Below, in pieces: positions 597 to 62,528 of a DNA stretch of 64,000 nt (position 1 is its first letter; every line of letters starts with the position of its first letter). Both the position numbers and the translations under genes were made by a program. The notes beneath the pieces were generated by a model. It saw only the letters and a program-made list of their open reading frames with translations. It was not told the origin of the DNA and searched no databases. Origin of the DNA: Tillus elongatus (Eukaryota; Arthropoda; Insecta; Coleoptera; Cleridae). The stretch spans positions 198,610,778-198,674,777 of the forward strand of contig OZ023262.1 of NCBI GenBank assembly GCA_964006375.1. The letters are read 5' to 3'.

Positions 597-1899
597 AGAA
601 AAGTCTTTCAGTAACAAATTCACTTGAATTTATTAATAAGATCAAAGAGGTTAAATTGACTGAAGGCTAGGTTTTAATTTCATTCGATGTAACCTCATTG
701 TTTCCTAGCGTTCCCACGGAGCAAACTTTAACATATTTAGAGCAGTTGCTAAAAATGAATAACATAAATGAAAATGTCTGCAAAGAATATTTAACTCTAA
801 CGAACCTTTGCATCAAACAAAATATTTTTCAATTCAACAATGAATTTTTTCAACAAACCCAAGGCACGGCAATGGGCAATCCGCTATCGCCATTTATTGT
901 AGACCTTTTCATGAGCAGATTTGAAACAGATCTTGAAAGTGAAAGTGGTTATATAGAGTGTGGTGTCGTTACGTGGATGATATTTTCGCAGTGTTTAACA
1001 CGAACATTTGCAGAATAGAAGATTTTATTGCCAAATTAAACAATAAATTTGATTCTATAAAATTTACCCACGAATGAGAAATTAATAATAAACTACCCTT
1101 TCTAGGTGTACTAGTTATCAAGAATAAAGACATTTTAGAATTCGATGTCTATAGAAAAGAAACCACTACCTTAAGCTACATCCCGAACGACTCACATCAT
1201 ACGTACGCACAAAAAATGGCCAGTCTGAATTTTTTAGTAAATCGGTTAATTAATTTTCTTTTAAACAAAAGTAGATATACCAAAGAATTAAATTATATTA
1301 AGAACGTGGCCGAATATAACGGATACACTGCTTGCCTAGTGGAAAAATTAATCAACAAACAGAAAACAAAGAAAATGTTGACGCAATCAACAACGTTCAG
1401 AAGAGAAAAATCGGAAAAAACTGTTTGCTTACCATTTGAACCTAGAATCATGAGGGGTCTAGACAGCATTTTTTAAAAAGTCAACTTACAGCTAACATTT
1501 TCAACAACAAATACCTTAAAAAACTTGCTAGGTAACCCAAAAGACAAGGATAGCGCGGACAAAATGTCGGGAATTTATGAAATAAGTTGTAAAGATTTCA
1601 ATCTTAAATACGCCGGACAAACAAAAAGATCGATTGGAATTAGATTCAAAGAACACATTTCCCAATTACGTTACGGCACTGTAGATAAGTCTTCCGTCGC
1701 CCGACATATTTGGGGTGATAACCATCACGTTAATAAAGATAATCTGAAATTAATAAAAAATGTTAGAAAACCAGGACAACTGAATGGGTTCGAAAGCGTA
1801 TATATTGCGAAATATAGTTACAACAAAAAATGTATGAACACTTCACCAGCGCCAATTACGAGTCACCTGATCGATTGCTTTGTTAAATATCGTTGTTAA
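597..1899 (+). pseudogene. PLE1 reverse transcriptase / GIY-YIG endonuclease remnant
   Basis: Penelope proteins combine a telomerase-like reverse transcriptase with a C-terminal GIY-YIG endonuclease. Visible here: RT motif A (SFDVTSLFPS, about 680-710), motif B (QGTAMGNPLSP, about 863-895), the catalytic RYVDDIFAV motif C near 967-993 in a different frame, and the thumb-side sequence up to about 1480. The endonuclease lies at 1525-1899, with GIYEIS, a YAGQT variant of the YIG box, a conserved arginine after it (GIRFKEH) and the late glutamate (FESVYI). Breaks: an in-frame TAG near 667, a frameshift just before YVDD, and further stops or shifts around 1075 and 1475. The N-terminal third is missing. 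It is a pseudogene, not a host gene. Confidence 0.85.
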
Positions 1900-22339: not shown

Positions 22340-23118
<779 letters not shown>

Positions 23119-23130
23119 ATTATTATTATT

Positions 23131-23754
<624 letters not shown>

Positions 23755-28880: not shown

Positions 28881-29332
28881 ATAAAGCTAATATGCAATTT
28901 TAGAAATGTATCCAAACATAGACCAAGCAAAACCAATAGACAGTGTTGTGAGTTTGGTGCTGGGTATGCAGTTTTCCCTAATGGTTCTGGTGCCATACAT
29001 TTTCGTTCTTCTCTAATTCTCCAACAATGGTATAGATAAGAAAAAATTGTCAAAATACAGCTGAAAACTAATATTAGAATATCTTTCTCTCAATCGATTG
29101 GCATATTTTAAAATAGCAGCTGTTCCCACGCCAAGGTCTTTATACTTGGTACTAATATTGGTCGTAGTAGCTCCCTGGTATGGTTTAAACCAATTTATAT
29201 AGCCTTGTTTTATAGTGCTCAACCATCATTTAAAACCATACCTTATCGGTTTCCATTTATAAATTGTTCACATCCATGTTTGCTGTTAAGTACACTTAGA
29301 GAACACCCAAATCACCACAACACATATTTCAG

Positions 29333-29380
29333 AGACCTTACGATCGTTTCGTTGACAAAGTCAACATCTTCAGATGGAGA
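29333..29380 (-). ncRNA. Hammerhead-like motif in PLE2, left arm
   Basis: On the - strand: CTGAAGA (29367-29373), stem II GTTGAC/GTCAAC with loop TTT, GAAA, C-GATC-G, and GTA as the cleavage triplet (29339-29341). Stem I is weakened compared with the right arm. One extra U lies between the box and stem II. Confidence 0.6.
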
Positions 29381-30047
29381 AAATTCGAACATAAAAAACT
29401 AGATCCCGTATATTTATATCACGTCAAGGTAAACGAACTAGTCCGAAGTAAAGTTGTCGTCCAAGAACGATCATTTGTTTATTGCGTAGTGAAACTACTA
29501 GGTCGGAAACCTGCTTTAATCTTCTGGTCGACAAATTTATGACCCTTATCTAATATAGGTGTAAAAGGACCCGAGTTATCTAAAGAATCAGCACGTTTCC
29601 TTTCGATCTAGAAATTTACTATGTAGTTATTGGATCATGCTGATAACGACATCTGGTAAGATAAACAACATCAACTCAACTCATCTTTTTTTAAATTAGA
29701 AAAGACAGATATCTGGGTTTTTAGTTTTCTAATTTTAAAAAAGATGAGTTGAGTTGATGTTGTTTATTTCACCAGATATCGTTATCGGCATGATCCAATA
29801 TCCACATGGTAAATTTCTAATCAAAAGGAAACGTGCTGATTCTTTAGATAACTCGGGTCCTTTTACACCTATATCAGATAAGGGTCATAAATTTGTCGAC
29901 CAGAAGATTAAAGCAGGTCTCCGACCTAGTAGTTTCACTGCGCAATAAACAAACGATCGTTCTTGGACGACAACTTTACTTCGGACTAATTTGTTTACCT
30001 TGACGCGATATAAATACACGGGATCTAGTTTTTTATGTTAGAATTTT

Positions 30048-30095
30048 CTTCCTCTGAAGATGTTGACATTGTCAACGAAACGATCGTAAGGTCTC
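30048..30095 (+). ncRNA. Hammerhead-like motif in PLE2, right arm
   Basis: CTGAAGA (30054-30060), extra T (30061), stem II GTTGAC/GTCAAC with loop ATT (30062-30076), GAAA (30077-30080), C-GATC-G (30081-30086), cleavage triplet GTA (30086-30088), stem I CCT/AGG. Position 7 of the box tolerates any base, so CUGAAGA is allowed. It has the same fold as the PLE1 motif with different stem II bases. Confidence 0.65.
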
Positions 30096-30990
30096 TGAAA
30101 TATGTGTTGTGGTGATTTGGGTGTTCTCCAAGTGTACTTATTAGTGCTCATCACAGGTTACAGTTTTTCACATAGTCATGTTTGCTGTAATAAGGCATCA
30201 TGGCCTCATCAATGCTATGATTTTCAAGAAATCTATTTGCTAAAAACGTTTTGTTCAGTTGGTTAAAAAATGGCGTAACTTTTGCAAATTTATCATTTCG
30301 ATCTATGTTGGTATTGTCAGAAAAATTTATATTGGACATAATGAACTCAAATTTATCTCTAGATATGGCTCGACTTTCCATTATGTTATAAGTGTCTTCA
30401 GCTTACTCCCAATACATCCTACGACATGGAACATCTAAATATCCAGATAGACTTAGAACACCTAGGTAACATTTCATCTCAGATAACTTAATTATGGTGG
30501 TTTTTTTTGTGATGCATATCTATTCATTTTTCGAGGGGTTTTGTAAAAAATTCGTCATAGACAAATCTCACGAAATAGTTATATGGATTGTTGCTTTCAA
30601 TGTTAAAATTTGAGTTTAGAAAATACTTGAGGATGCCGTCAAGTTGCCTTTCTCATAATCAGATTCTTTTCTTTTCTTTATTACCTTTGCTTGTTCTGAA
30701 AGGTTGTAAGAGGTAAATCATTATCAGATGACCAGTCATCAGTATCTTGAGCACAATTTAGTTCTACTTAACTCTGCATTTGCGAACTAGGTAAATTGTT
30801 TATATCAACATAATCCTCATCAGTGACATCTCCACATTCATTTGTTGGTGGCAGTAGCATTTATATCATCATCTTCTAATATTGATAACACTTCGTGAAG
30901 GGTGAAGCCTGTGAAAATATAAAAGTATTTTATGTCATACTAGTTCATTATTGTGATTTTATTGCTTAGTTACCAGCTACATAATGGTGT

Positions 30991-42700: not shown

Positions 42701-43275
42701 TCTTTCAGTGCTGTTTTGCTTATGGTTTACAGTTTATTTTAATGTGGCCTATTATCATTGACGGTTGTGGTTGAGTGTGAATAGCTCTGCTAAACTTTGC
42801 CTTTTCCTGATGGTGGTTGTGGGGTTGTAATAACAATTGTAATGATTAGTTAATAAAGGCAATATTTATTCTAGTTTATTTAAATGTAATAATTTGCAAA
42901 ATAACCAATTAATCTGGAAACAAAAATTATTTACTGTGAATGCAGCAAAAGAGTTACAGCTGTACGATCTGCTTATTCTAGGTCAGTTTATTCCCAGCTT
43001 CTTGATTCTTGCAGTAAAAGTTTCAAATTGCAATAAATAGGGTCTGGTTTTTGAAGCAATAGTAGATCCGGTCCTGGATCTTGGAATTTTTTTTTGAATA
43101 TTATTGTAATAAATACAATGCCTGTAATACAACTACAAATTCTGTTAATAAACAGGATGGTTCAAAAGTTATGTCAAAACAAAGGTTTCATGGAAATCAA
43201 CTGAACAACCCATATCTAAAGGCTGTGGGTCATCAATCAATATATTTCCAGTTGTTTTGTGGTCAGCTATGTGTA
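42701..43275. other. Non-coding stretch, nothing recognised
   Basis: AT-rich sequence; no gene seen. The last two bases (TA, 43274-43275) are the left duplication of the mariner element at 43276. Confidence 0.45.
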
Positions 43276-44924
43276 CAGGCTGGCTCAAATTCGAGCCTCA
43301 TCATTGGTATCTCGGAAACTGTAAGAGATACAACGTCGGTTAAATTATGGCAAAGTTACGTAATTTGATGCTCAGCAAAATGCAGTTTAGAAAATTAGAA
43401 AATTCCGAATACTTCCGGTGATAATCGGAAAAAACAGAAAACTCATAAGATATCTTTTACTTTTTTTCTGGCGTTATTTGAAAAGATATAACAAAATGAA
43501 TCACACTTCATCAAGGTCACTTTTTCTCTTCTACAAGATGGCATTTTCAAATTTGAAATCCGATGTTTCGTCTTTCAGAAAACATCATCAACTCGATTTT
43601 TTCAAATACGGTCCTGAATTCTTTATTTCATATTTTGTTACCTTTGTACTACCTCAAAACAATGCCTCATCACAACTTTTGAATTTCAAACGTTTTGATA
43701 ACAAATAATGACATTTTCCGTCTTTCTTGAAAATATTTAATGCTTACTTAACTTTTAAAACAAATTAAAAAACCTAAAGTAAATGCTCGAATAAGCCCCC
43801 TTGGACTTCTATGCATTTTCGCATACGTCTTCGCAGATTGTTCGTAACAGCCCGGTGGATTATTCTTCCCCTTGCTCATAGAGTTGTGAATTCTTACACT
43901 AACTTTTGGCGCAAAATGTTCATATCATTCGGAAAAGTATCCTTGAATAAGCGATTTTTTAAGAATCCCCATAAAAAATAATCCAGTGGGGACAAATCAG
44001 CACTTCTGACAGGCTAGCGCACCACTCCTTGGTTTCCAATCCATTGATTGGGAAATGTTTCATTAAGAAACTCGGTTACTGCCCTTCCATTATGGGGTGG
44101 TGCACCATCCTGTTGCCACCACAGCTGCCACAACATATTCAACGGTTCATCTTCAAGCGCATCGAATATATAATTATGGGTTAAATTAAGATACTGTTCA
44201 GTATTTAAGTTTCCATCATAAAAAATTGGCCCTAAGATTTTGGTTCGATACATTCCAACCCAAACATTGAATGATTTTCGTCCCTGTCTTCGAACTTGCC
44301 GATTTTGGTACGGATTTTCTACTGCATAATAATGCTCATTGTTTCTGTTAAAAAGGCAACTTGTGGAAAAATTACATTCATCTGTCCAGATGATTTTATT
44401 TAAGAAATCATCATCTTGTTGCATTTTTCCATCAAGCCAATTGCAGAATTCAAGCCTTCTGTCCCTGTCTCCTAGTCTTAGTTCTTGGCAAACATGAAGT
44501 TTATAGGGATAATAGTTATGTTTTTTGAAAACCCTCTGAATTCAGCTTCTTGTCATATTCAGTTCTGAACCAAATTGCCATGTCGAACCACGAGGATTTT
44601 CCGTGACCTTTATAAAAACGTTTTGGTGAAATATCTTTGACATGTTATCGCAAAATATTATAGTAATAAAAGATTGCATATCATCATTTTATAATGATAC
44701 AGCATTTAAATCAGCTTCTTCATCTTCAGCTTCCATTCGTTGGCCGTACGAATTTCTAGGTTTAACAAAACTACCAGAGACCTAAATTTCCTGCATACAG
44801 ACTTGGAGAATACTTCTCTAGCTTCACTGTTGGTTTTTAGTGGTGAAGGACGTAGCCAGCGCGTGAGCTAACTGGAGCAAGTGGCCCTTCGAATTCTGGA
44901 AGTTCTAGGATGTTCTTCAATGCT

Positions 44925-44967
44925 TCTGTGACTATAGTTTCGCTGCTTGACAGCATTTTCAGACAGA
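44925..44967 (-). ncRNA. Hammerhead-like motif at the 3' end of PLE3 (- copy)
   Basis: Identical to the motif at 50493-50535, including the G8-to-A change. The change thus predates the duplication or belongs to the family. Confidence 0.55.
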
Positions 44968-45307
44968 TTAAAATTGAATTAGTACGAAATCATGACAACT
45001 ACAAATAAATATCTGTTGCTAGGTTATGATATGATGTTTTGATCAAAAAATTTTATCAAATAGAAAATAAAATGAAACACAGATGACAGATGAGGTTTTC
45101 AAAATGTCTATGTGATGTATGTCAATATTTAACATAAAAAACTAGAACTAGCCTATAATAACTATGATAACAGTTACAACAATAAAATAACTAAACAATA
45201 ACAGTATAAACGTAGTCTCTATACAACGAAAATATCGACATACATCAACTCATTATTTTATTACAACTTTTTTGAAATAATAGTTAAATTTATTTTCTTT
45301 GGCATAT

Positions 45308-47854
45308 TTAATTAGAAAGAAGAATATCCAAGAAAGGGGAATTCATTAAATCAGTTTGCTCGTTTAAAACAAGGTAGTTATTGTCGTGTGTGTGCCTTTT
45401 GACTTCTAAAGCTTCAAAAAAGTCTAGTTTACGTTTGTCATCATAAAAATGTAGTGGTTCTATGCGGTTATTTATTGTAGGTCTATGTTCGGTATCAATA
45501 ATATGTTTTGCAAATGTAGATTTGTCAGCGTGGTTATTTCTAAATGCAGAAATATGTTCTTTGTATCGGGTGTTAAAATTTCTAGAAGTTTGACCTATGT
45601 AGATTGCGTTACAATGTGTACAAGCTAATTTATAAACTCCAGCTTTTGTCAGGAAACAAGATTTTTCTTTCGCGTTAAATAACAAATCACGCGTCGTGTT
45701 GTAAGATTTAAAAGCTACCTTTGTATTTGTACAAGTGTTTAAAATTTTTGAAATGTTTTCTGAAATGGTTCCAAAATAAGTTATCGAAACGTATCTGTTG
45801 TCTTCTTTGTCTCTAATATTTGGATAAATTAAATTAATCGCTAATTTGTATTCTTTTCTCTCTATCATTTTATCTATTATTTTAACAGAGTAGCCATTAT
45901 TAAATGCTGTTTGCTTAATTATTGAAATTTCTTTTTCAAAATTGTTTTGTGACATAGGTATTGAAAATGCACGATGTATCATAGAATGATAGGCTGACAG
46001 CTTTTGTGAAAAAGGGTGACATGAATCGTATGGTATGGTTGTGTCAGTGTAAGTTGGTTTCCTATATATTGAAGAGTCAAATGAATTATTTTCTAATTTT
46101 CTAATTGTTAAGTCTAAAAAGTTTATACAACTGTTAGCTTCTTCTTCTAGAGTAAACTTAATATTTGTGTGAAAGCTATTAATAAAATTTAAAAATTCAT
46201 TTAATTCTGTATGACTACCTTGAAAACATGCTAAAATATCATCTACGTATCTGTACCAAAAGACAATATTATGTGAAAGTTCTGATGTTAAAATTTGGTT
46301 TTCTAAGTTTTCCATAAATATGTTGGCTAATAAAGGTGACAACGGACTACCCATAGGCAGACCTTCATTTTGCATATAAATTTTATTATTAAATTTAAAA
46401 TAGTTTTGTTTTATACATTCATTAAAAAGATTCATCATTTCTTGTCTTTTTATGACATTTACGTTCTTTTCTATTAAAACGTTTTCTAATAGAGGTAAAC
46501 ATTCTTTAGGGGGTATCTTAGAATACATGCTACAAACATCAAACGAAACTAATTTACTATTTGTGGGAATAATTAAGTTATTTAATTTTTGTGTAAGTTC
46601 ATAAGAATTCTTAACTGAGTATTTTGGAAAGTAATTGTATTCTTTAATAAGTGAAACCAGTTTGCTCGCTATCTTATGATTAGGTGTATTAACATAGCTA
46701 ACTACTGGTCTCACTGGTTTATTTGGCTTATGAATTTTCAGGTGGCCATATAATTTTGGTGGTTGCGGGCTTTTATATAAAAGATATTTCTTTTCTTGTT
46801 GACTAAACAGAGACACATTTTTAAGTTCATTTTTTAGTTTTGTCTGAAATGCGTTTGTTGGGTCTCTCCTAATTTCTGTTAAATTTTCCGTAGTAATAAA
46901 ATCATTAATTTTAATGTTATATGCGTCCCTACTTATAGCTACAGTTGTATTTCCTTTATCAGCTTTAGTAAAAATTAAATCATTGTCTAATATTTTATGC
47001 TGAACAGATTTTAAAATTTGAGTTTCGTTAATTTGACGTTTGTCATATTTTGAAGTTAAATGTCTTAAAAATTCACATATTTTTAATTTTTCATATTGCC
47101 TTATAGATCTGGAAGCAATTTCGGATTCAGAAGCTAATATCTCTTTAATTTTGTTTGTAAATTTAAATTTTGGGCAGTATTTATATCCTTTATTTAGAAA
47201 AGAAATTTCTTCAGTTGTAAAAATTGTATCGCTTAGGTTTTCAAACCTTTTGTAAAACTTATGTGTTTGTGGGGGAGATCTTTCTCGATTATGTAAATGT
47301 TGTGTGCTTTCTAGGTTTCTAATTTTGTTTGTCTGTGTTAAGCGTTTTTTAAATTTCAATTCACTAACTAAAATATGTATTTGGTCATCTAATATATCAA
47401 ATTCTACTGGATGTAATTTATAAGCAAGTTCTGAATGGATTACCTTGATATAAAGAAGCAAACTATCACGAATTGAAAACCATTTCTTGGATTCTTCTTT
47501 AAGCCAGATGAAACTGGCTTTTCTAATAGCAATTTTTGATTGATTTGATGTTATAGTAGTTGTTATGATTACGTACTTCGGGATGACCTTCTTTCTTATG
47601 CACTCTTGGTTAAACCATGCATTCTGGGAAGCGTTCATCTGCTTGATTTTCAATTTTCTATACAAATGGGCAAGCTCTTCGATAGAAGACCTCTTCAATT
47701 CATTGATTGTTGTTGCCCTTACTTGGTGAAACTTGTCCATACTGCAACAACAATCAATGAATTGAAGAGGTCTTCTATCGAAGAGCTTGCCCATTTGTAT
47801 AGAAAATTGAAAATCAAGCAGATGAACGCTTCCCAGAATGCATGGTTTAACCAA
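45308..47854 (-). CDS. Penelope-like RT / GIY-YIG endonuclease, - copy
   Basis: The frame has 848 codons, but residues 1-37 (MVKPCILGSV...DCCC) are the antisense of the opposite copy. The element's own sequence starts at 47744 and its first Met at 47740 (MDKFHQVRAT), giving 810 residues. Domains from that end: basic N-terminal linker; FTKADKGNTTVAIS; PPKLYGHLKIHKPNKPVRPV; motif A LVSFDVCSMYSKIP; motif B NEGLPMGSPLSPLLANIFM; motif C WYRYVDDILACF with both Asp; NFLDLTIRK; and C-terminal GIY-YIG endonuclease with GVYKLACTHCNAIYIGQT, the Arg in NFNTRYKEH and the Glu in FFEALEVKRH. No stop or shift. It may still code for an active protein. The natural start may lie in the terminal repeat and is not certain. 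Confidence 0.9.
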   Translation of the reverse strand: MVKPCILGSVHLLDFQFSIQMGKLFDRRPLQFIDCCCSMDKFHQVRATTINELKRSSIEELAHLYRKLKIKQMNASQNAWFNQECIRKKVIPKYVIITTTITSNQSKIAIRKASFIWLKEESKKWFSIRDSLLLYIKVIHSELAYKLHPVEFDILDDQIHILVSELKFKKRLTQTNKIRNLESTQHLHNRERSPPQTHKFYKRFENLSDTIFTTEEISFLNKGYKYCPKFKFTNKIKEILASESEIASRSIRQYEKLKICEFLRHLTSKYDKRQINETQILKSVQHKILDNDLIFTKADKGNTTVAISRDAYNIKINDFITTENLTEIRRDPTNAFQTKLKNELKNVSLFSQQEKKYLLYKSPQPPKLYGHLKIHKPNKPVRPVVSYVNTPNHKIASKLVSLIKEYNYFPKYSVKNSYELTQKLNNLIIPTNSKLVSFDVCSMYSKIPPKECLPLLENVLIEKNVNVIKRQEMMNLFNECIKQNYFKFNNKIYMQNEGLPMGSPLSPLLANIFMENLENQILTSELSHNIVFWYRYVDDILACFQGSHTELNEFLNFINSFHTNIKFTLEEEANSCINFLDLTIRKLENNSFDSSIYRKPTYTDTTIPYDSCHPFSQKLSAYHSMIHRAFSIPMSQNNFEKEISIIKQTAFNNGYSVKIIDKMIERKEYKLAINLIYPNIRDKEDNRYVSITYFGTISENISKILNTCTNTKVAFKSYNTTRDLLFNAKEKSCFLTKAGVYKLACTHCNAIYIGQTSRNFNTRYKEHISAFRNNHADKSTFAKHIIDTEHRPTINNRIEPLHFYDDKRKLDFFEALEVKRHTHDNNYLVLNEQTDLMNSPFLDILLSN

Positions 47855-50152
47855 GAGTGCATAAGAAAGAAGGTCATCCCGAAGTACGTAATCATAACAA
47901 CTACTATAACATCAAATCAATCAAAAATTGCTATTAGAAAAGCCAGTTTCATCTGGCTTAAAGAAGAATCCAAGAAATGGTTTTCAATTCGTGATAGTTT
48001 GCTTCTTTATATCAAGGTAATCCATTCAGAACTTGCTTATAAATTACATCCAGTAGAATTTGATATATTAGATGACCAAATACATATTTTAGTTAGTGAA
48101 TTGAAATTTAAAAAACGCTTAACACAGACAAACAAAATTAGAAACCTAGAAAGCACACAACATTTACATAATCGAGAAAGATCTCCCCCACAAACACATA
48201 AGTTTTACAAAAGGTTTGAAAACCTAAGCGATACAATTTTTACAACTGAAGAAATTTCTTTTCTAAATAAAGGATATAAATACTGCCCAAAATTTAAATT
48301 TACAAACAAAATTAAAGAGATATTAGCTTCTGAATCCGAAATTGCTTCCAGATCTATAAGGCAATATGAAAAATTAAAAATATGTGAATTTTTAAGACAT
48401 TTAACTTCAAAATATGACAAACGTCAAATTAACGAAACTCAAATTTTAAAATCTGTTCAGCATAAAATATTAGACAATGATTTAATTTTTACTAAAGCTG
48501 ATAAAGGAAATACAACTGTAGCTATAAGTAGGGACGCATATAACATTAAAATTAATGATTTTATTACTACGGAAAATTTAACAGAAATTAGGAGAGACCC
48601 AACAAACGCATTTCAGACAAAACTAAAAAATGAACTTAAAAATGTGTCTCTGTTTAGTCAACAAGAAAAGAAATATCTTTTATATAAAAGCCCGCAACCA
48701 CCAAAATTATATGGCCACCTGAAAATTCATAAGCCAAATAAACCAGTGAGACCAGTAGTTAGCTATGTTAATACACCTAATCATAAGATAGCGAGCAAAC
48801 TGGTTTCACTTATTAAAGAATACAATTACTTTCCAAAATACTCAGTTAAGAATTCTTATGAACTTACACAAAAATTAAATAACTTAATTATTCCCACAAA
48901 TAGTAAATTAGTTTCGTTTGATGTTTGTAGCATGTATTCTAAGATACCCCCTAAAGAATGTTTACCTCTATTAGAAAACGTTTTAATAGAAAAGAACGTA
49001 AATGTCATAAAAAGACAAGAAATGATGAATCTTTTTAATGAATGTATAAAACAAAACTATTTTAAATTTAATAATAAAATTTATATGCAAAATGAAGGTC
49101 TGCCTATGGGTAGTCCGTTGTCACCTTTATTAGCCAACATATTTATGGAAAACTTAGAAAACCAAATTTTAACATCAGAACTTTCACATAATATTGTCTT
49201 TTGGTACAGATACGTAGATGATATTTTAGCATGTTTTCAAGGTAGTCATACAGAATTAAATGAATTTTTAAATTTTATTAATAGCTTTCACACAAATATT
49301 AAGTTTACTCTAGAAGAAGAAGCTAACAGTTGTATAAACTTTTTAGACTTAACAATTAGAAAATTAGAAAATAATTCATTTGACTTTTCAATATATAGGA
49401 AACCAACTTACACTGACACAACCATACCATACGATTCATGTCACCCTTTTTCACAAAAGCTGTCAGCCTATCATTCTATGATACATCGTGCATTTTCAAT
49501 ACCTATGTCACAAAACAATTTTGAAAAAGAAATTTCAATAATTAAGCAAACAGCATTTAATAATGGCTACTCTGTTAAAATAATAGATAAAATGATAGAG
49601 AGAAAAGAATACAAATTAGCGATTAATTTAATTTATCCAAATATTAGAGACAAAGAAGACAACAGATACGTTTCGATAACTTATTTTGGAACCATTTCAG
49701 AAAACATTTCAAAAATTTTAAACACTTGTACAAATACAAAGGTAGCTTTTAAATCTTACAACACGACGCGTGATTTGTTATTTAACGCGAAAGAAAAATC
49801 TTGTTTCCTGACAAAAGCTGGAGTTTATAAATTAGCTTGTACACATTGTAACGCAATCTACATAGGTCAAACTTCTAGAAATTTTAACACCCGATACAAA
49901 GAACATATTTCTGCATTTAGAAATAACCACGCTGACAAATCTACATTTGCAAAACATATTATTGATACCGAACATAGACCTACAATAAATAACCGCATAG
50001 AACCACTACATTTTTATGATGATAAACGTAAACTAGACTTTTTTGAAGCTTTAGAAGTCAAAAGGCACACACACGACAATAACTACCTTGTTTTAAACGA
50101 GCAAACTGATTTAATGAATTCCCCTTTCTTGGATATTCTTCTTTCTAATTAA
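47606..50152 (+). CDS. Penelope-like RT / GIY-YIG endonuclease, + copy
   Basis: This is the mirror twin of the - copy, also 848 codons. Residues 1-46 come from reading the opposite copy backwards through the 30 bp centre. Native sequence begins at about 47744 with ATTINELKRSSIEEL. The RT motifs (FDVCSMYSKIP, GLPMGSPLSPLL, YRYVDDILACF) and the GIY-YIG endonuclease (GVYKLA...IYIGQT, TRYKEH, FFEALEVK) are all present. The native N-terminal MDKFHQVR is missing because the copy starts about 14 codons later. The first Met inside element sequence is MNASQNAWF, so any protein would be shortened or start on antisense sequence. Near-identity with the other copy means the pair formed recently. Confidence 0.9.
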   Translation: MVKPCILGSVHLLDFQFSIQMGKLFDRRPLQFIDCCCPYLVKLVHTATTINELKRSSIEELAHLYRKLKIKQMNASQNAWFNQECIRKKVIPKYVIITTTITSNQSKIAIRKASFIWLKEESKKWFSIRDSLLLYIKVIHSELAYKLHPVEFDILDDQIHILVSELKFKKRLTQTNKIRNLESTQHLHNRERSPPQTHKFYKRFENLSDTIFTTEEISFLNKGYKYCPKFKFTNKIKEILASESEIASRSIRQYEKLKICEFLRHLTSKYDKRQINETQILKSVQHKILDNDLIFTKADKGNTTVAISRDAYNIKINDFITTENLTEIRRDPTNAFQTKLKNELKNVSLFSQQEKKYLLYKSPQPPKLYGHLKIHKPNKPVRPVVSYVNTPNHKIASKLVSLIKEYNYFPKYSVKNSYELTQKLNNLIIPTNSKLVSFDVCSMYSKIPPKECLPLLENVLIEKNVNVIKRQEMMNLFNECIKQNYFKFNNKIYMQNEGLPMGSPLSPLLANIFMENLENQILTSELSHNIVFWYRYVDDILACFQGSHTELNEFLNFINSFHTNIKFTLEEEANSCINFLDLTIRKLENNSFDFSIYRKPTYTDTTIPYDSCHPFSQKLSAYHSMIHRAFSIPMSQNNFEKEISIIKQTAFNNGYSVKIIDKMIERKEYKLAINLIYPNIRDKEDNRYVSITYFGTISENISKILNTCTNTKVAFKSYNTTRDLLFNAKEKSCFLTKAGVYKLACTHCNAIYIGQTSRNFNTRYKEHISAFRNNHADKSTFAKHIIDTEHRPTINNRIEPLHFYDDKRKLDFFEALEVKRHTHDNNYLVLNEQTDLMNSPFLDILLSN

Positions 50153-50492
50153 ATATGCCAAAGAAAATAAATTTAACTATTATTTCAAAAAAGTTGTAAT
50201 AAAATAATGAGTTGATGTATGTCGATATTTTCGTTGTATAGAGACTACGTTTATACTGTTATTGTTTAGTTATTTTATTGTTGTAACTGTTATCATAGTT
50301 ATTATAGGCTAGTTCTAGTTTTTTATGTTAAATATTGACATACATCACATAGACATTTTGAAAACCTCATCTGTCATCTGTGTTTCATTTTATTTTCTAT
50401 TTGATAAAATTTTTTGATCAAAACATCATATCATAACCTAGCAACAGATATTTATTTGTAGTTGTCATGATTTCGTACTAATTCAATTTTAA

Positions 50493-50535
50493 TCTGTCTG
50501 AAAATGCTGTCAAGCAGCGAAACTATAGTCACAGA
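50493..50535 (+). ncRNA. Hammerhead-like motif at the 3' end of PLE3 (+ copy)
   Basis: Stem I TCTGT/ACAGA pairs perfectly (50493-50497, 50531-50535). Then come box CTGAAAA (50498-50504), one extra T, stem II GCTG/CAGC with a 5-base loop (50506-50518), GAAA (50519-50522), C-TATA-G and GTC (50528-50530). The box should be CUGANGA: position 8, a catalytic G, is A here. It has the same layout as the PLE1 and PLE2 motifs, but a key residue is altered. Confidence 0.55.
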
Positions 50536-51709
50536 AGCATTGAAGAACATCCTAGAACTTCCAGAATTCGAAGGGCCACTTGCTCCAGTTAGCTCACGCG
50601 CTGGCTACGTCCTTCACCACTAAAAACCAACAGTGAAGCTAGAGAAGTATTCTCCAAGTCTGTATGCAGTATGGACAAGTTTCACCAAGTAAGGGCAACA
50701 ACAATCAATGAACCTAAATTTCCGTTCAAATTGTTAAAATATAAATAATGGGGTTGTGGACGCTCAGGGTATTGCTCTAAATATCGTTCACATGAAATGT
50801 GCGAGTTTCTGTTATTACTATAATAAATCGAAAGCATATCACGTTTCTCGAAATTGGAAAACACCTTTTTTGCTCTCTTAATGTTTATTTTGAAAGTTAA
50901 ATTGTCAAAAGTTCTATTGTCACATTATGACAAGCAAGGTTGATATTTCTGAATATCAAAGCTGCCGAGATGAACGAACAGACATGTCATTGCATTGCAT
51001 TGGATTGAACTTAAAATATTTGACTCATAATCATAAATTCGGGTTCACCTTTACCTACCTAATCAAATTATATTATTGAAGAAATATTTTGTTTCAAAAC
51101 CAGAGTCGTATTAAATATTTTCAAGAAAAGTTAAGTAAGCATGAAATATTTTCAAGAAATACTGAAAATGTCATTATTTGTTATCAAAACGTTTGAAATT
51201 CAAAAGTTGTAATGAGGCGTTGTTTTGAGGTAGTTCAAAGGTAACAAAATATGAAATAAAAAATCCAGGGCCGTATTTAAAAAAATGGAATTGATGATGG
51301 TTTCCGAAAGACTAAAAATTGAATTTCAAATTTGAAAATGCCATTTTGTAGGAGAGGAAAAGTGACCTTGATGAAGTGTGATTCATTTTGTTATATCTTT
51401 TCAAATAACGCCAGAAAAAAATAAAACAGATTTTATCAGTTTTAGGTTTTTTCCGATTATCACCGGAAGTATTCGGAATTTTCTAATTTTCTAAACTGCA
51501 TTTTGCTGAGCATCAAATTACGCAACTTTATCATAATTTAACCGACGTTGTATCTCTTACAGTTTCCGAGATACCAATGATGAGGCTCGAATTTGAGCCA
51601 CCCTGTACTGCAATTATATTTACTCTATGTATATTTCGCTATGAATTACCCTGTATCATTAATAATTAATATTTTTTACTAGTACTAATTTATTTATTTG
51701 TATTTACAG

Positions 51710-56772: not shown

Positions 56773-56804
56773 GTAAGTATCTTTATGTTAGATATAATCT
56801 TATA

Positions 56805-59677
56805 CAGGGTGCTTCACAGTGAGTGGCCTATTAGACGTTTCTGGAGAACTACATCTATTTAAATTCTGAAAATTTGTATTCACACGTTTTTGATATTGAT
56901 CTTTCTCACTAAAATATTTTCAATTAGCCTGCACTTCCGGTTAAACCGGAAGTCGACACAAACTTTGTTTTTTTTTTTAATTGAACACCCTGTATATTAT
57001 TAGCTTTTTGAATTACACGTTCAATTTAAGGGCCACTTTATGACAACATATTCGGGCTAGTTCGTACCGTTTCGGATTTATTCGCCATTTTGTAGAAAAA
57101 GTTATGATCGGAGCGCTTTAGAAAAATTTCGATATCTTTAAAGACATGCAAGACAGAAACATGCGGTTTTCACTATCCAATAGAGCGTAAAAATTTCTAC
57201 ATACTGTTATAAACACAATACGATTTTAAGATAACTGTTATTTATAAAATACATTTGAATTTCAAAATTTTCAATCAGAGATAAATTGATTTTTTTTAAT
57301 GGAAGGGTACCCATATGTTCCCAGCATCTGATTCGGCGTTAAATTCCCTATCTTCTAAGTATACATTACTCTATGCCTATCTCTTATAGTTTTCTTTCAA
57401 AATTGATTTGAAAATATTAATGGTCAGCGGGGTAGCGCCAACCATTGACTACTTCTGCCTTTAATGAGTGTCTTATTTTAAAAGTGACATACAGTAACTT
57501 GCAGTTCCAACCGATTCCTTTTTTGATAACTTTCCGACCTATATTGGGTATTTCCTATAGCTAAAAAGGACAGTTTTTGAGGTATTTAGAGACATTCAAA
57601 AACATAACACAGCATAATTTTTCCTTATACTATGGTCAACGTCAACGTTAAGGCAAGTGTGCCATGATGAACAATTTATATTACATACTCGTCATTCTAA
57701 ATTATTCCATAAATGTCAATGTACTAATGTTCACAGTTAAGATGGAAAATCATTATTCCAATGCAGATTATTTGAATTTATCTTACATCCATGGAGAATG
57801 TAACTAAATTATTAGTGGAACATGTAGAAGGTTTAATGAGTTAAATCCTAATCTGCCACCCATGAGTGAAAAGAAGTTTAGAAGGATTGAGTCAAATTTC
57901 CTAGAATTTGGTACTTTTAAAACACCCAAAGTGAACCCCAGTCCAGTGACTAGAGATGAAGATAACGAAATAACTGTCCTGGCTTATTTCGAAGCATATC
58001 CACATGCCTCTATTTACACTGCAGTGAACGACTTAGGTATTCCTTACTCCTCTGTGGAAAGAATCTTGTGGAAGCACAAAATGCACAACTATAAGTTTAC
58101 TTTAGTGCAAGCTCTGCATCAAGAAGATGCTAGTAAAAGGGTCAAGTTTTGTGAAACGATGTTAATTCATATTCAAAGAGATGATGACTTTAAAAAAAGA
58201 ATTATATGGGCTGATGAATCAAAATTTTCTCATGAAGGAGTTTTCAATAGACATAACAGTCATGTTTGGGCAAATCAAAACCCTCACGCTATTAGGGAAA
58301 GGGGATTTCAAGTAAAATTTAGTTTCAATGTGTTTTGTTTATTGAAAGGTAATAACTTTTATTCTCATATTTATGATAGAACCTTAACTTCTAATCGTTA
58401 CATGGAAATATTAAGAACAATAGTTACAGACTTTTTAGACAATTTACCATTCTCAGAATATAGAACTTGTTGGTATCAACATGACGGAGCTCCTGCTCAC
58501 TCTACACAAGAAATATCTAACACGCTCGACAATCTATTTAAAGATAGATGGATTGGAAAGTGCGGTCCCTGGATATGGCCCGCAAGAAGTCCAGATCTTA
58601 CCCCGCTTGATTTCCATCTTTGGGGAAAGATAAAAACCAAAGTATATGAAACGGCCGTCAATTCTTGCGAATAATTAGAGATCAGAGTAAGAAGGGCGTT
58701 TGAAGAGTTAGATAGGAATGAGATTCTGTCAGCAACCACTAGCGGCATTACGACACGAATATTAAAATGTTTGAGTGTTAATGGACAACATTTTGAGTAG
58801 TTACTAGTTTAGGAGGTGTGAGTTGTTTTGTTACTCGTGTTGTAATAATACTTATAGGATTTATAAGATTGTCTAAGGTAATAATATCACTGTTGTTATC
58901 CCTAGAAATTTTTTTAATTTTTTTTTAAATATATTAAATACATAATTTTTAAACACAATAACAATATTTCTTTATTCTAATTTTTTACTTGAACATGAAA
59001 TATTTTTGTTTCTACTGTATTTTTTTGTTACGTACAAAAAAAATGACACTGCCCTGCTAACAATTACTATTTTCAAATCAATTTTCTAAGAAAACTATAG
59101 GAGATAGGTATAGGGTAATGTATACTTAAAAGATAGGGAATTTAACGCTGAATCAGATGCTGGAGACATATGGATACCGTTCCATTAAAAAAAATCAAGT
59201 TATCTCTGATTGAAAATTTTCGAATTCAAATGTATGTTATAAATAACAGGTATTTTAAAATCGTATTATGTTTATAACAGTATGTAGGAATTTTTACGCT
59301 CTATGGGATAGTGAAAACTGCATGTTTCTGTCTTGCATGTCTTTAAAGATATCGGAATTTTTCTAAAGCGCTCCGATCATAACTTTTTCTACAAAATGGC
59401 GAATAAATCCGAAACGGTACGAACTAGCCCGAATATGTTGTCATAAAGTGGCCCTTAAATTGAACCTGTAATTCAAAAAGTTAATAATATACAGGGTGTT
59501 CAATTAAAAAAAAACAAAGTTTGTGTCGACTTTCGGTTTAACCGGAAGTGCAGGCTAATTGAAAATATTTTATTTAGAAAGATCAGTATCAAAAACGTAT
59601 GGATACTAATTTTCACAATTTAAATAGATATAGTTCTCCAGAAACGTCTAATAGGCCACTCACCGTGAAGCATCCTG
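56805..59677 (+). mobile_element. Nearly intact mariner element with ~620 bp TIRs
   Basis: Starts CAGGGTGCTTCACAGTGAGT and ends with CACCGTGAAGCATCCTG, each beside TA (56803-56804, 59678-59679). The inverted repeats extend to about 57435 and from about 59065, with long identical runs such as CCGGTTTAACCGGAAGT. It fills nearly all of intron 6, with 183 bp left before the next exon. Confidence 0.9.
57742..58800 (+). pseudogene. DD41D-type mariner transposase with two stop codons
   Basis: The full frame from ATG 57742 to TAG 58800 has 353 codons without any frameshift. Only two in-frame stops interrupt it: TAA at 57805-57807 (codon 22) and TAA at 58672-58674. Between them runs an open stretch with the helix-turn-helix part (ASIYTAVNDLGIPYSSVERI), IIWADESKFSHEG (first Asp), WYQHDGAPAHS (second) and WPARSPDLTPLDFHLWGKIK (third, 41 residues after the second). 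The end KCLSVNGQHFE follows the second stop. All three catalytic Asp are intact. The DD41D spacing is a known group in insects. Confidence 0.9.
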
Positions 59678-59860
59678 TATAGGGCATATCAAATTTAATA
59701 CATTTATAGGATAGATTTGTCACCAGCACCTTTAATCAGAAACTAATGTGACAACACTTTGGCTTCATTTTTAGATATTTCTTAAATGAAAGTTTTAAAA
59801 TTATAGAAGTTTTAGTAGTGTGACTTAAGTTTGTTCAACTTTTGTTTGTTCTCTTTCCAG

Positions 59861-60246: not shown

Positions 60247-61366
<1,120 letters not shown>

Positions 61367-61481: not shown

Positions 61482-61590
<109 letters not shown>

Positions 61591-62333
61591 TATTTATTTA
61601 TTTATATGCGTTAAAATTGATCCAATTTGGTTAAAATATTAAACTGAAACCTATCAAAATCCTATTGACACTGACATTTCTTGCCATAAAATTTCGGTAT
61701 TTCAAATTTACAATTTATTCAACCAATCTTCAGTTATTAGCACCTCCAATATTTCCTCTACATCCTTTAAACTTCCCAACCATTTTTCACTCCAAAATAG
61801 TTTTCTTTCAACTTTAGTTTAATATTATTTTCAAACATTTTATCCAATAACTCAAAAAATAATTAACCGATTTCGATTAAACTCGGCAAGTGCCTTTCTT
61901 TTATTAATGGCTTGGATGAGTTCGTTAGCCAGGAAAATCTGACCGGGTTTTCCGGGAAAATATTGAATTTTCTTTTGAAAAAAAATTTTTTTCTCCGAAA
62001 ATTACAAAGCTGTTTTAATGTGATTTACTATATATGTTGCCTTGGGAGAGACCTTACTACGTACCAAAATTCTATTTTCCAAGTTTACAGAAAATTTAAT
62101 TTTGGTACGTAGTAAGGTCTCTCCCAAGACAACATATATAGTAAATCACATTAAAACAGCTTTGTAATTTTCGGAGCAAAAATTTTTTTTCAAAAGAAAA
62201 CTCAAAATTTTCCCGGAAAACCATGTCACATTTTTTTAGCTAACGAACTCATCCAAGCCATTAATAAAAGAAAGGCACTTGTCGAGTTTATTTGAAATCG
62301 GTTAATTATTTTTTGAGTTATCGGATACATACA

Positions 62334-62528
<195 letters not shown>

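What the first reader, a model, noticed from the sequence alone, without database searches (positions are those of the whole stretch)
44792..50711. Two full-length Penelope copies head to head, each one unit long but with permuted start points
A 5.9 kb near-perfect palindrome with a 30 bp centre is inserted as one event (TSD ACCTAAATTTCC). Both copies equal one 2,951 bp unit, yet open at different places: the - copy at CAGTATGG, overlapping its own end by 2-3 bases, and the + copy at CAACAACAATC, overlapping by 16 bases. Inverse joining of Penelope copies is known, but usually one is a short fragment. Two complete permuted units point to a circular or tandem-repeat template copied twice with a strand switch. 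Inference, not shown.
Basis: partly seen in the sequence, partly recalled or inferred. Interest (0 to 1): 0.9.

Follow-up and report, generated by a model that had tools for sequence, protein, structure and literature searches.

The report
Two-headed Penelope insertions from paired starts
This is a Penelope-family jumping gene inserted as two nearly identical mirror-image copies, and in all 55 resolved two-copy insertions of its family with a duplicated target site, this one included, one copy has a short tail and the other lacks it, so the two cut strands of the target are likely both copied from one RNA at two fixed neighbouring start sites.

Summary
In detail: two Penelope-like copies lie head to head inside one 12-bp target duplication, each one 2,951-bp unit, differing by 2 bases in 2,925. 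The circular-template and strand-switch reading is not supported. The same genome holds thousands of relatives (8,503 hits to the 33-bp tail). In all 55 two-armed insertions that I resolved with a TSD the arms end at two fixed unit sites 42 nt apart, one arm at each; one further pair has two tails but no TSD. A tail-blind pattern census of short pairs found exactly one tail in 49 of 50 listed. In the ten long loci the two arms share source alleles (84 of 85 comparisons), and inner ends of a pair lie near each other more often than chance. Inner ends vary and arms run from about 35 nt to 2.6 units, so the start=end match here is not a rule. Best reading: both target strands are cut, and each 3' end primes on the same linear multi-unit RNA, one at each site. 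Double priming and two start sites are published in vitro for an anole element; the strict pairing and likely single RNA look new.

The parts
44780..44791 (.). left target site duplication ACCTAAATTTCC
44792..47744 (-). left arm: full unit ending at the no-tail site (GTATGCA|TSD); 5' end at unit position 2949
45308..47740 (-). ORF of 810 codons, reverse transcriptase plus GIY-YIG endonuclease, with its own ATG
44925..44967 (-). hammerhead-like motif of the left arm (mirror of 50493-50535)
   Evidence: coordinates computed from unit positions 2775-2817
47716..47744 (.). 29-bp asymmetric centre of the palindrome (belongs to the left arm)
47745..50711 (+). right arm: full unit plus tail; 5' end at unit position 27
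47744..50152 (+). open frame of the right arm; lacks the first 8 codons and the ATG
50670..50711 (+). 42-nt tail (unit positions 1-42, start of the next ORF), ends at the tail site
50618..50669 (+). unit positions 2900-2951, the short pseudo-LTR segment; U2900 is the aligned 5' end of three arms at other loci
50493..50535 (+). variant minimal hammerhead-ribozyme-like motif
   Evidence: 0 of 300 shuffles; descriptor written after seeing it; no Rfam hammerhead hit at E<=1
50712..50723 (.). right target site duplication ACCTAAATTTCC

Best explanation
This is a target-duplicated pair of Penelope-like copies whose two arms end at two fixed sites 42 nt apart, likely primed one from each cut strand of a single target and likely copied from one linear multi-unit RNA. 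Shown: outer ends at two fixed unit sites (no-tail near U2950, tail near U42), one of each in all 55 resolved TSD-flanked pairs; a TSD of about 12 bp; shared source alleles in the arms of the ten long loci; inner ends of a pair often close together. Inferred: (1) the GIY-YIG enzyme makes a staggered cut leaving two 3' overhangs of about 12 nt; (2) one overhang primes at the no-tail site and the other at the tail site of the same RNA, because the first cDNA already covers the no-tail site; (3) both reverse transcriptases run towards the RNA 5' end, the tail one behind the no-tail one; (4) the two cDNA 3' ends are joined head to head, mostly with 0-7 nt of microhomology; (5) the RNA is a multi-unit transcript of tandem genomic arms, often starting near U2900. 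Steps 2 and 3 are the least certain.
For: Arms end one at each site: 10 of 10 long loci, 36 of 36 resolved loci of a tail-selected sample of 70 (34 with TSD mismatch <=1, two with 2; L142 has 0.5 kb between its arms), 9 of 9 TSD-flanked loci of a tail-blind set of 12. Tail-blind pattern census of short pairs: of 123 found, 50 were listed; 49 of these have exactly one tail by two probes, none has none (four of them are also among the 55). Same source, ten long loci: 84 of 85 left/right allele comparisons agree, the one exception being a private base of the window's left arm; 1 of 5,000 shuffles as good. Reach of the two arms: Spearman 0.86 over 47 loci, 24 of 47 within 60 nt against 7.9 by shuffling (0 of 5,000); within the tail-selected set alone 0.74 over 33, 16 of 33 within 30 nt against 6.7 (0 of 10,000). 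Among the 24 close pairs the no-tail arm reaches further in 20, the tail arm in 3. Symmetric target: AAC|TSD|GTT half-sites 11 of 20 (post hoc) and 12 of 62 against 3.5 expected in 31 loci not used to find the motif (P 1.5e-4). Literature (PMC11167929): the anole element cleaves and extends both strands in vitro, starts internally at two adjacent sites, and the tail lies between them; a dimer is predicted there.
Against: One head-to-head pair has two tails (C2:15.09 Mb; it has no TSD, so it may be a rearrangement), and one short pair shows the tail start on both sides (C1:322314340, unresolved). Of the 70 tail-selected loci, 11 show a tail arm with no partner found (one, L116, with a TSD) and one, L092, a lone no-tail arm, so single priming occurs and the tail site can be used alone. 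In 13 of 47 loci the tail arm reaches further, sometimes by kilobases (L070, L071, L074), which needs displacement or loss of the leading cDNA. Many short pairs share one recurrent centre, so the order effect and part of the short-pair census may not be independent events. With both reaches above 80 nt in the tail-selected set the coupling is weaker (rho 0.56, n=16; 7 within 60 nt against 3.4, 136 of 10,000). Shared alleles would also fit two RNAs from one source locus. The published in vitro work saw no difference in start site between strands.
Confidence: 0.58

Rival explanations
1. Each strand is primed separately on its own RNA inside one dimeric particle whose two halves are not equivalent, one half always using the tail site and the other the no-tail site.
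For: One-of-each outer ends; a dimer is predicted for the anole protein (PMC11167929); loci where one arm is kilobases longer; shared alleles if both RNAs come from one source locus.
Against: Does not predict that the two inner ends lie near each other at positions that differ from locus to locus (24 of 47 within 60 nt against 7.9 by shuffling).
Confidence: 0.23
2. One reading: a circular or tandem unit copied once round, with a strand switch in the middle; each copy stops where it began.
For: In the window both arms overlap their own ends by 2-3 and 16 bp; multi-lap arms carry the same private alleles in each lap (L076).
Against: In the other nine long loci the inner ends lie 36 nt to more than 1 kb (in unit phase) from the arm's own start, with three aligned at U2900; arms run past one lap (up to 2.6 units); a strand switch does not give the second arm its different outer end; tandem genomic units exist.
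Confidence: 0.08
3. Self-priming: the first cDNA folds back at its 3' end and is copied into the second arm (proposed for Adineta Penelope on an antisense template, PMC3846280).
For: Palindromic centres such as L069, where AGTG could pair with CACT; near-equal inner ends in half of the loci.
Against: A copy of the tail arm must lie inside it, yet the no-tail arm reaches further in 33 of 47 loci; a copy of the no-tail arm could not carry the tail; copying back would run into the flank and not end at one fixed site with a TSD.
Confidence: 0.08
4. Assembly fault or later inverted duplication.
For: No reads were available; C2:15.09 Mb shows that a pair can lack a TSD.
Against: Different flanks, exact TSD, two private differences between arms, and the same structure at dozens of loci with other TSDs.
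Confidence: 0.03

Closest known systems
Poseidon of Anolis carolinensis (PAc), Penelope/Poseidon clade (PMC11167929; parts 1 and 2 of 4 of the text read)
   Same: RT plus GIY-YIG in one ORF; internal start of reverse transcription near the ORF start at two adjacent sites that bound a tail; both target strands cleaved and extended in vitro; a hammerhead motif with the ORF start at the beginning of stem II.
   Different: The paper reports no apparent difference in start site between strands; here each resolved pair uses one site per strand. Its most common start lies 111-118 nt inside the ORF, here the sites lie at the ORF start and 38 nt inside it. The hammerhead-like core here departs from the consensus, and its ATG opens a short upstream frame, not the main ORF.
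Penelope of Adineta vaga, Pen2a_Av and relatives (PMC3846280; passages and the Discussion read)
   Different: There the inverted part is typically a pLTR of about 200 bp and self-priming on antisense RNA is proposed; here both arms can be full or multi-unit, and the pLTR segment is only about 52 bp.
LINE-1 twin priming (recalled, not read)
   Same: Two target 3' ends prime on RNA, giving an inverted junction inside one TSD.
   Different: As recalled, in L1 only one end carries the RNA 3' terminus and the second priming is internal and variable; here both outer ends are fixed sites.
Retrozymes (PMC7229834; passages read)
   Same: Tandem units and small hammerheads; Penelope-like elements are proposed there as candidate mobilisers.
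   Different: Non-autonomous and expressed as circular RNA; no circle is needed here.

Membership tests
Penelope-like element with endonuclease (Penelope/Poseidon type) | reverse transcriptase domain | tested here: met
   Pfam RVT_1, E 1.2e-15
Penelope-like element with endonuclease (Penelope/Poseidon type) | C-terminal GIY-YIG endonuclease in the same ORF | tested here: met
   Pfam GIY-YIG 22.9 bits against cut-off 22.6, residues 700-739
Penelope-like element with endonuclease (Penelope/Poseidon type) | tandem or partial tandem units giving pseudo-LTRs | tested here: met
   arms of more than one unit, up to 2.6, at other loci; in the window itself the overlap is only 3 and 16 bp
Penelope-like element with endonuclease (Penelope/Poseidon type) | optional 3' tail of 30-40 bp and inverted copies with a short TSD | tested here: met
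   tail of about 42 nt on one arm of each of 55 resolved pairs; TSDs 10-14 bp as called
Penelope-like element with endonuclease (Penelope/Poseidon type) | minimal hammerhead ribozyme | tested here: inconclusive
   motif with perfect helix I and GAAA but AAAU in place of UGA; no Rfam hammerhead hit
Penelope-like element with endonuclease (Penelope/Poseidon type) | placement in the clade by a tree | not tested
   155 protein relatives found, best 52% identity; no tree was built
Self-primed (snapback) inverted insertion | second arm contained in the first | tested here: not met
   no-tail arm further in 33 of 47 loci, tail arm further in 13, equal in 1
Circular-template insertion | each copy ends where it began | tested here: not met
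   20 arms of 10 loci: true only for the two arms of the window
Twin priming | both target 3' ends primed on element RNA inside one TSD | tested here: inconclusive
   the anatomy fits (outer ends at fixed unit sites on both sides of one TSD); priming itself is not testable with these tools

The most novel reading that the evidence does not exclude
Penelope integration is two-headed by design: a symmetric staggered cut frees two 3' ends, and two reverse transcriptases copy one and the same RNA in convoy, the second forced to the tail site because the first cDNA covers the other. The optional tail, the inverted copy, the short TSD and the near-equal arms would then all be footprints of one reaction.
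Probability: 0.4. Interest if true: 0.78.

Novelty: new member of a known kind. Interest (0 to 1): 0.62.

Why it matters
[quoted passage not shown]). If both strands are primed on one RNA at two set sites, the tail, the inverted copies and the short TSD follow from one reaction, and each part can be tested with a protein already shown to be active. [quoted passage not shown]

Tried and rejected
Tried without gain: relatives in prokaryote genomes (none; 46 loci, of which only L001 matched beyond the RT region and was looked at, a diverged Penelope piece) and in viral contigs (none; 14 loci, matches within query residues 296-547, not followed up). Rfam showed no ribozyme, only hits below the families' own cut-offs. 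Folding of the tail region is unremarkable (z -0.87 and -0.32). A promoter-like CAGT at the - copy start was considered, but other loci put a common 5' end near U2900 instead. A strict 'no-tail site always first' rule was weakened by lone tail arms.

Rows set aside: of the 70 loci were resolved as one tail plus one no-tail; L125 has only 7 nt of a possible second arm; 11 show a lone tail arm (L116 with a TSD; L080, L084, L085, L104, L120, L121, L122, L126, L127 and L144 without a convincing one); L092 shows a lone no-tail arm without TSD; 21 could not be resolved, mostly because an arm runs out of the fetched stretch or is interrupted (L101 and L102 are one locus; list). Of 12 tail-blind loci (neighbouring hits among the 100 listed, known loci left out) nine are tail/no-tail with TSD, two were not resolved because the right outer end was not reached (C1:150.3, C1:27.86) and one has two tails and no TSD (C2:15.09). 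In one search, L114, L140 and L142 and the five tail-blind loci without a fetched centre were left out, and the inner ends of the short no-tail arms of L082, L124 and L147 were read by eye, to within about 2 nt. Of 123 short pairs only the 50 listed on C1-C3 could be classed. Confidence in the best explanation and in the novel case was lowered slightly after the recount of lone arms.

Papers: PMC2377424, PMC4209133 and PMC8557442 are not held. Searches in which I saw no statement of strict pairing or of one RNA for both arms: (listings; beyond these, text or passages of five papers: PMC11167929, PMC3846280, PMC7229834, PMC12910113, PMC8969392). The held library lacks most subscription papers.

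Full report
WHAT IS THERE. The palindrome is as described. Two copies of a 2,951-bp unit lie head to head between two copies of ACCTAAATTTCC. Counting the unit from the T of TATGGACAAG (U1), the left arm runs U2949...U2951,U1...U2950 (the next G is shared with the TSD) and the right arm runs U27...U2951,U1...U42. The left outer end is therefore GTATGCA (called no-tail, N) and the right outer end is 42 nt further on (called tail, T); the 42 nt are the start of the ORF. The left ORF has 810 codons with its own ATG; the right frame lacks the first 8 codons. Pfam finds reverse transcriptase and GIY-YIG, and the 155 protein relatives include several named from insects. The two arms differ by two substitutions in 2,925 bp.

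THE TEST. The window's own genome (1.72 Gb, 30 contigs) could be searched (which scored only 10 of 4,747 candidates), and nine further long loci were fetched. All ten are head-to-head pairs with TSDs of 12-13 bp. Their 20 outer ends fall at only two places: ten at U2947-U2951 (up to 3 nt more where target letters match) and ten at U41-U46 (U49 in L073, with one mismatch), and each locus has one of each. Their inner ends vary (left/right): 2949/27 (window), 2900/2914, 1078/2008, 2656/2912, 2900/2928, 2507/1348, 2924/2900, 2658/1177, 810/1103, 2855/880. Start=end holds only for the window. Nine of 20 inner ends lie in one 80-nt stretch (0 of 5,000 random sets; the width was chosen after seeing them), and three align at U2900, two of these with 1-4 nt of slack from joint microhomology. 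This is what a common RNA 5' end would give (inference). Some arms are longer than one unit: up to 2.0 units here, and 2.6 units in both arms of a 15-kb insertion at C2:29.95 Mb. Exact hits spaced by 2,950 bp show tandem units in the genome, so a circle is not required.

THE RULE. A sample chosen only for holding the tail (first exact hits on contig C1; 70 fetched loci) gave 36 loci with both outer ends and a TSD resolved: all 36 are T on one side and N on the other. Another 11 show a lone tail arm, one a lone no-tail arm, L125 is doubtful and 21 are unresolved. Because that sample cannot show pairs with no tail, I took loci by a tail-blind pattern. Of 12, nine had a TSD and all nine are T/N; one pair at C2:15.09 Mb has two tails and no TSD; two could not be resolved. 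A letter-free census of short pairs followed: 123 pairs genome-wide match two facing cores; of the 50 that were listed, 49 have exactly one tail by two tail probes, none has none, and one (C1:322314340) shows the tail start on both sides by the first probe and on one side by the second. Four of the 50 are also among the 55. A pattern for two facing tails found 5 places; at four at least one arm runs on into the ORF, and the fifth is C1:322314340. Many short pairs share the same centre, so they may not all be independent insertions.

ONE TEMPLATE. In the ten long loci, at 11 variable sites, the two arms of a locus agree in 84 of 85 comparisons; shuffling partners does as well in 1 of 5,000. Without the window, at four sites, 30 of 30 agree (2 of 5,000). 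Private alleles recur in each lap of a long arm (L076). The distance each arm reaches from the unit boundary is correlated within loci (rho 0.86, n=47; tail-selected only 0.74, n=33), and 24 of 47 pairs agree within 60 nt against 7.9 by shuffling. Part of the 0.86 comes from mixing long and short sets; restricted to tail-selected loci with both reaches above 80 nt it is 0.56 (n=16). Where the arms agree, the N arm is usually the slightly longer one (20 against 3). This fits two enzymes on one RNA, the T enzyme behind the N enzyme, but a recurrent centre in short pairs weakens the order argument, and in 13 of 47 loci the T arm reaches further.

TARGET. Cuts tend to fall so that the TSD lies between AAC and GTT: 11 of 20 half-sites in the ten long loci, where the motif was noticed, and 12 of 62 in 31 loci not used to find it, against 3.5 expected. 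A two-fold symmetric site would fit a dimer that cuts both strands (inference).

WHAT WAS KNOWN. For the anole element, both strands are cleaved and extended in vitro, reverse transcription starts internally at two adjacent sites, and the tail lies between them (PMC11167929, parts 1-2 of 4 read). [quoted passage not shown] A curation guide lists inverted pLTRs and 3' extensions as peculiarities of individual copies (PMC8969392, passages). In the searches I saw no statement that the two sites are used once each, nor that one RNA serves both arms; the library lacks most subscription papers.

VERDICT. The window holds an ordinary, nearly intact member of a large and, to judge by the near identity of its long copies, recently active Penelope family. 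What is worth attention is the strict pairing of outer ends and the signs of a single RNA template, both directly testable. Mechanism: double priming is likely; one RNA is favoured over two; the order of the two primings is a suggestion.

Noticed in passing
window 608-1824 (+): Decayed piece of another Penelope-like element, 31-37% identical in protein to the one reported.
   Followed up: no
window 43273-43756 and 51126-51608: 484-bp inverted repeats, 93.4% identical, on both sides of the pair: probably the terminal repeats of a DNA or fold-back transposon into which the pair inserted.
   Followed up: partly
window 29287-30140, 61841-62327, 56801-57435 with 59049-59681: Further inverted or palindromic repeats of 490-856 bp, 91-93% identical.
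   Followed up: no
window 22899-23129, 23448-23752, 60844-61040, 61482-61607, 62325-62525: Short dispersed arrays that match each other on both strands at many offsets, like a satellite carried by several elements.
   Followed up: no
window 50493-50535 (+) and 50504-50623 (+): Hammerhead-like motif with an ATG at the start of stem II that opens a 39-codon upstream frame, a layout like that described for the anole element, but with AAAU in place of UGA in the core.
   Followed up: partly
G000 C2:29945760-29961300 (ends L167, L164; centre L168): Insertion of about 15 kb whose two arms are each about 2.6 units long and differ in reach by about 80 nt.
   Followed up: partly
G000 C2:15090510-15094350 (L161, L162, L166): The one resolved head-to-head pair with two tails; no TSD, flanks do not match.
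   Followed up: partly
L071 and L075, left arms: Two insertions share an inner end near U2656-2658, perhaps a second RNA 5' end or pause.
   Followed up: no
L086, L103, L137 and many short pairs: A recurrent centre joining about U2912 to U2915 at the foot of a possible CTTCAC/GTGAAG hairpin.
   Followed up: no
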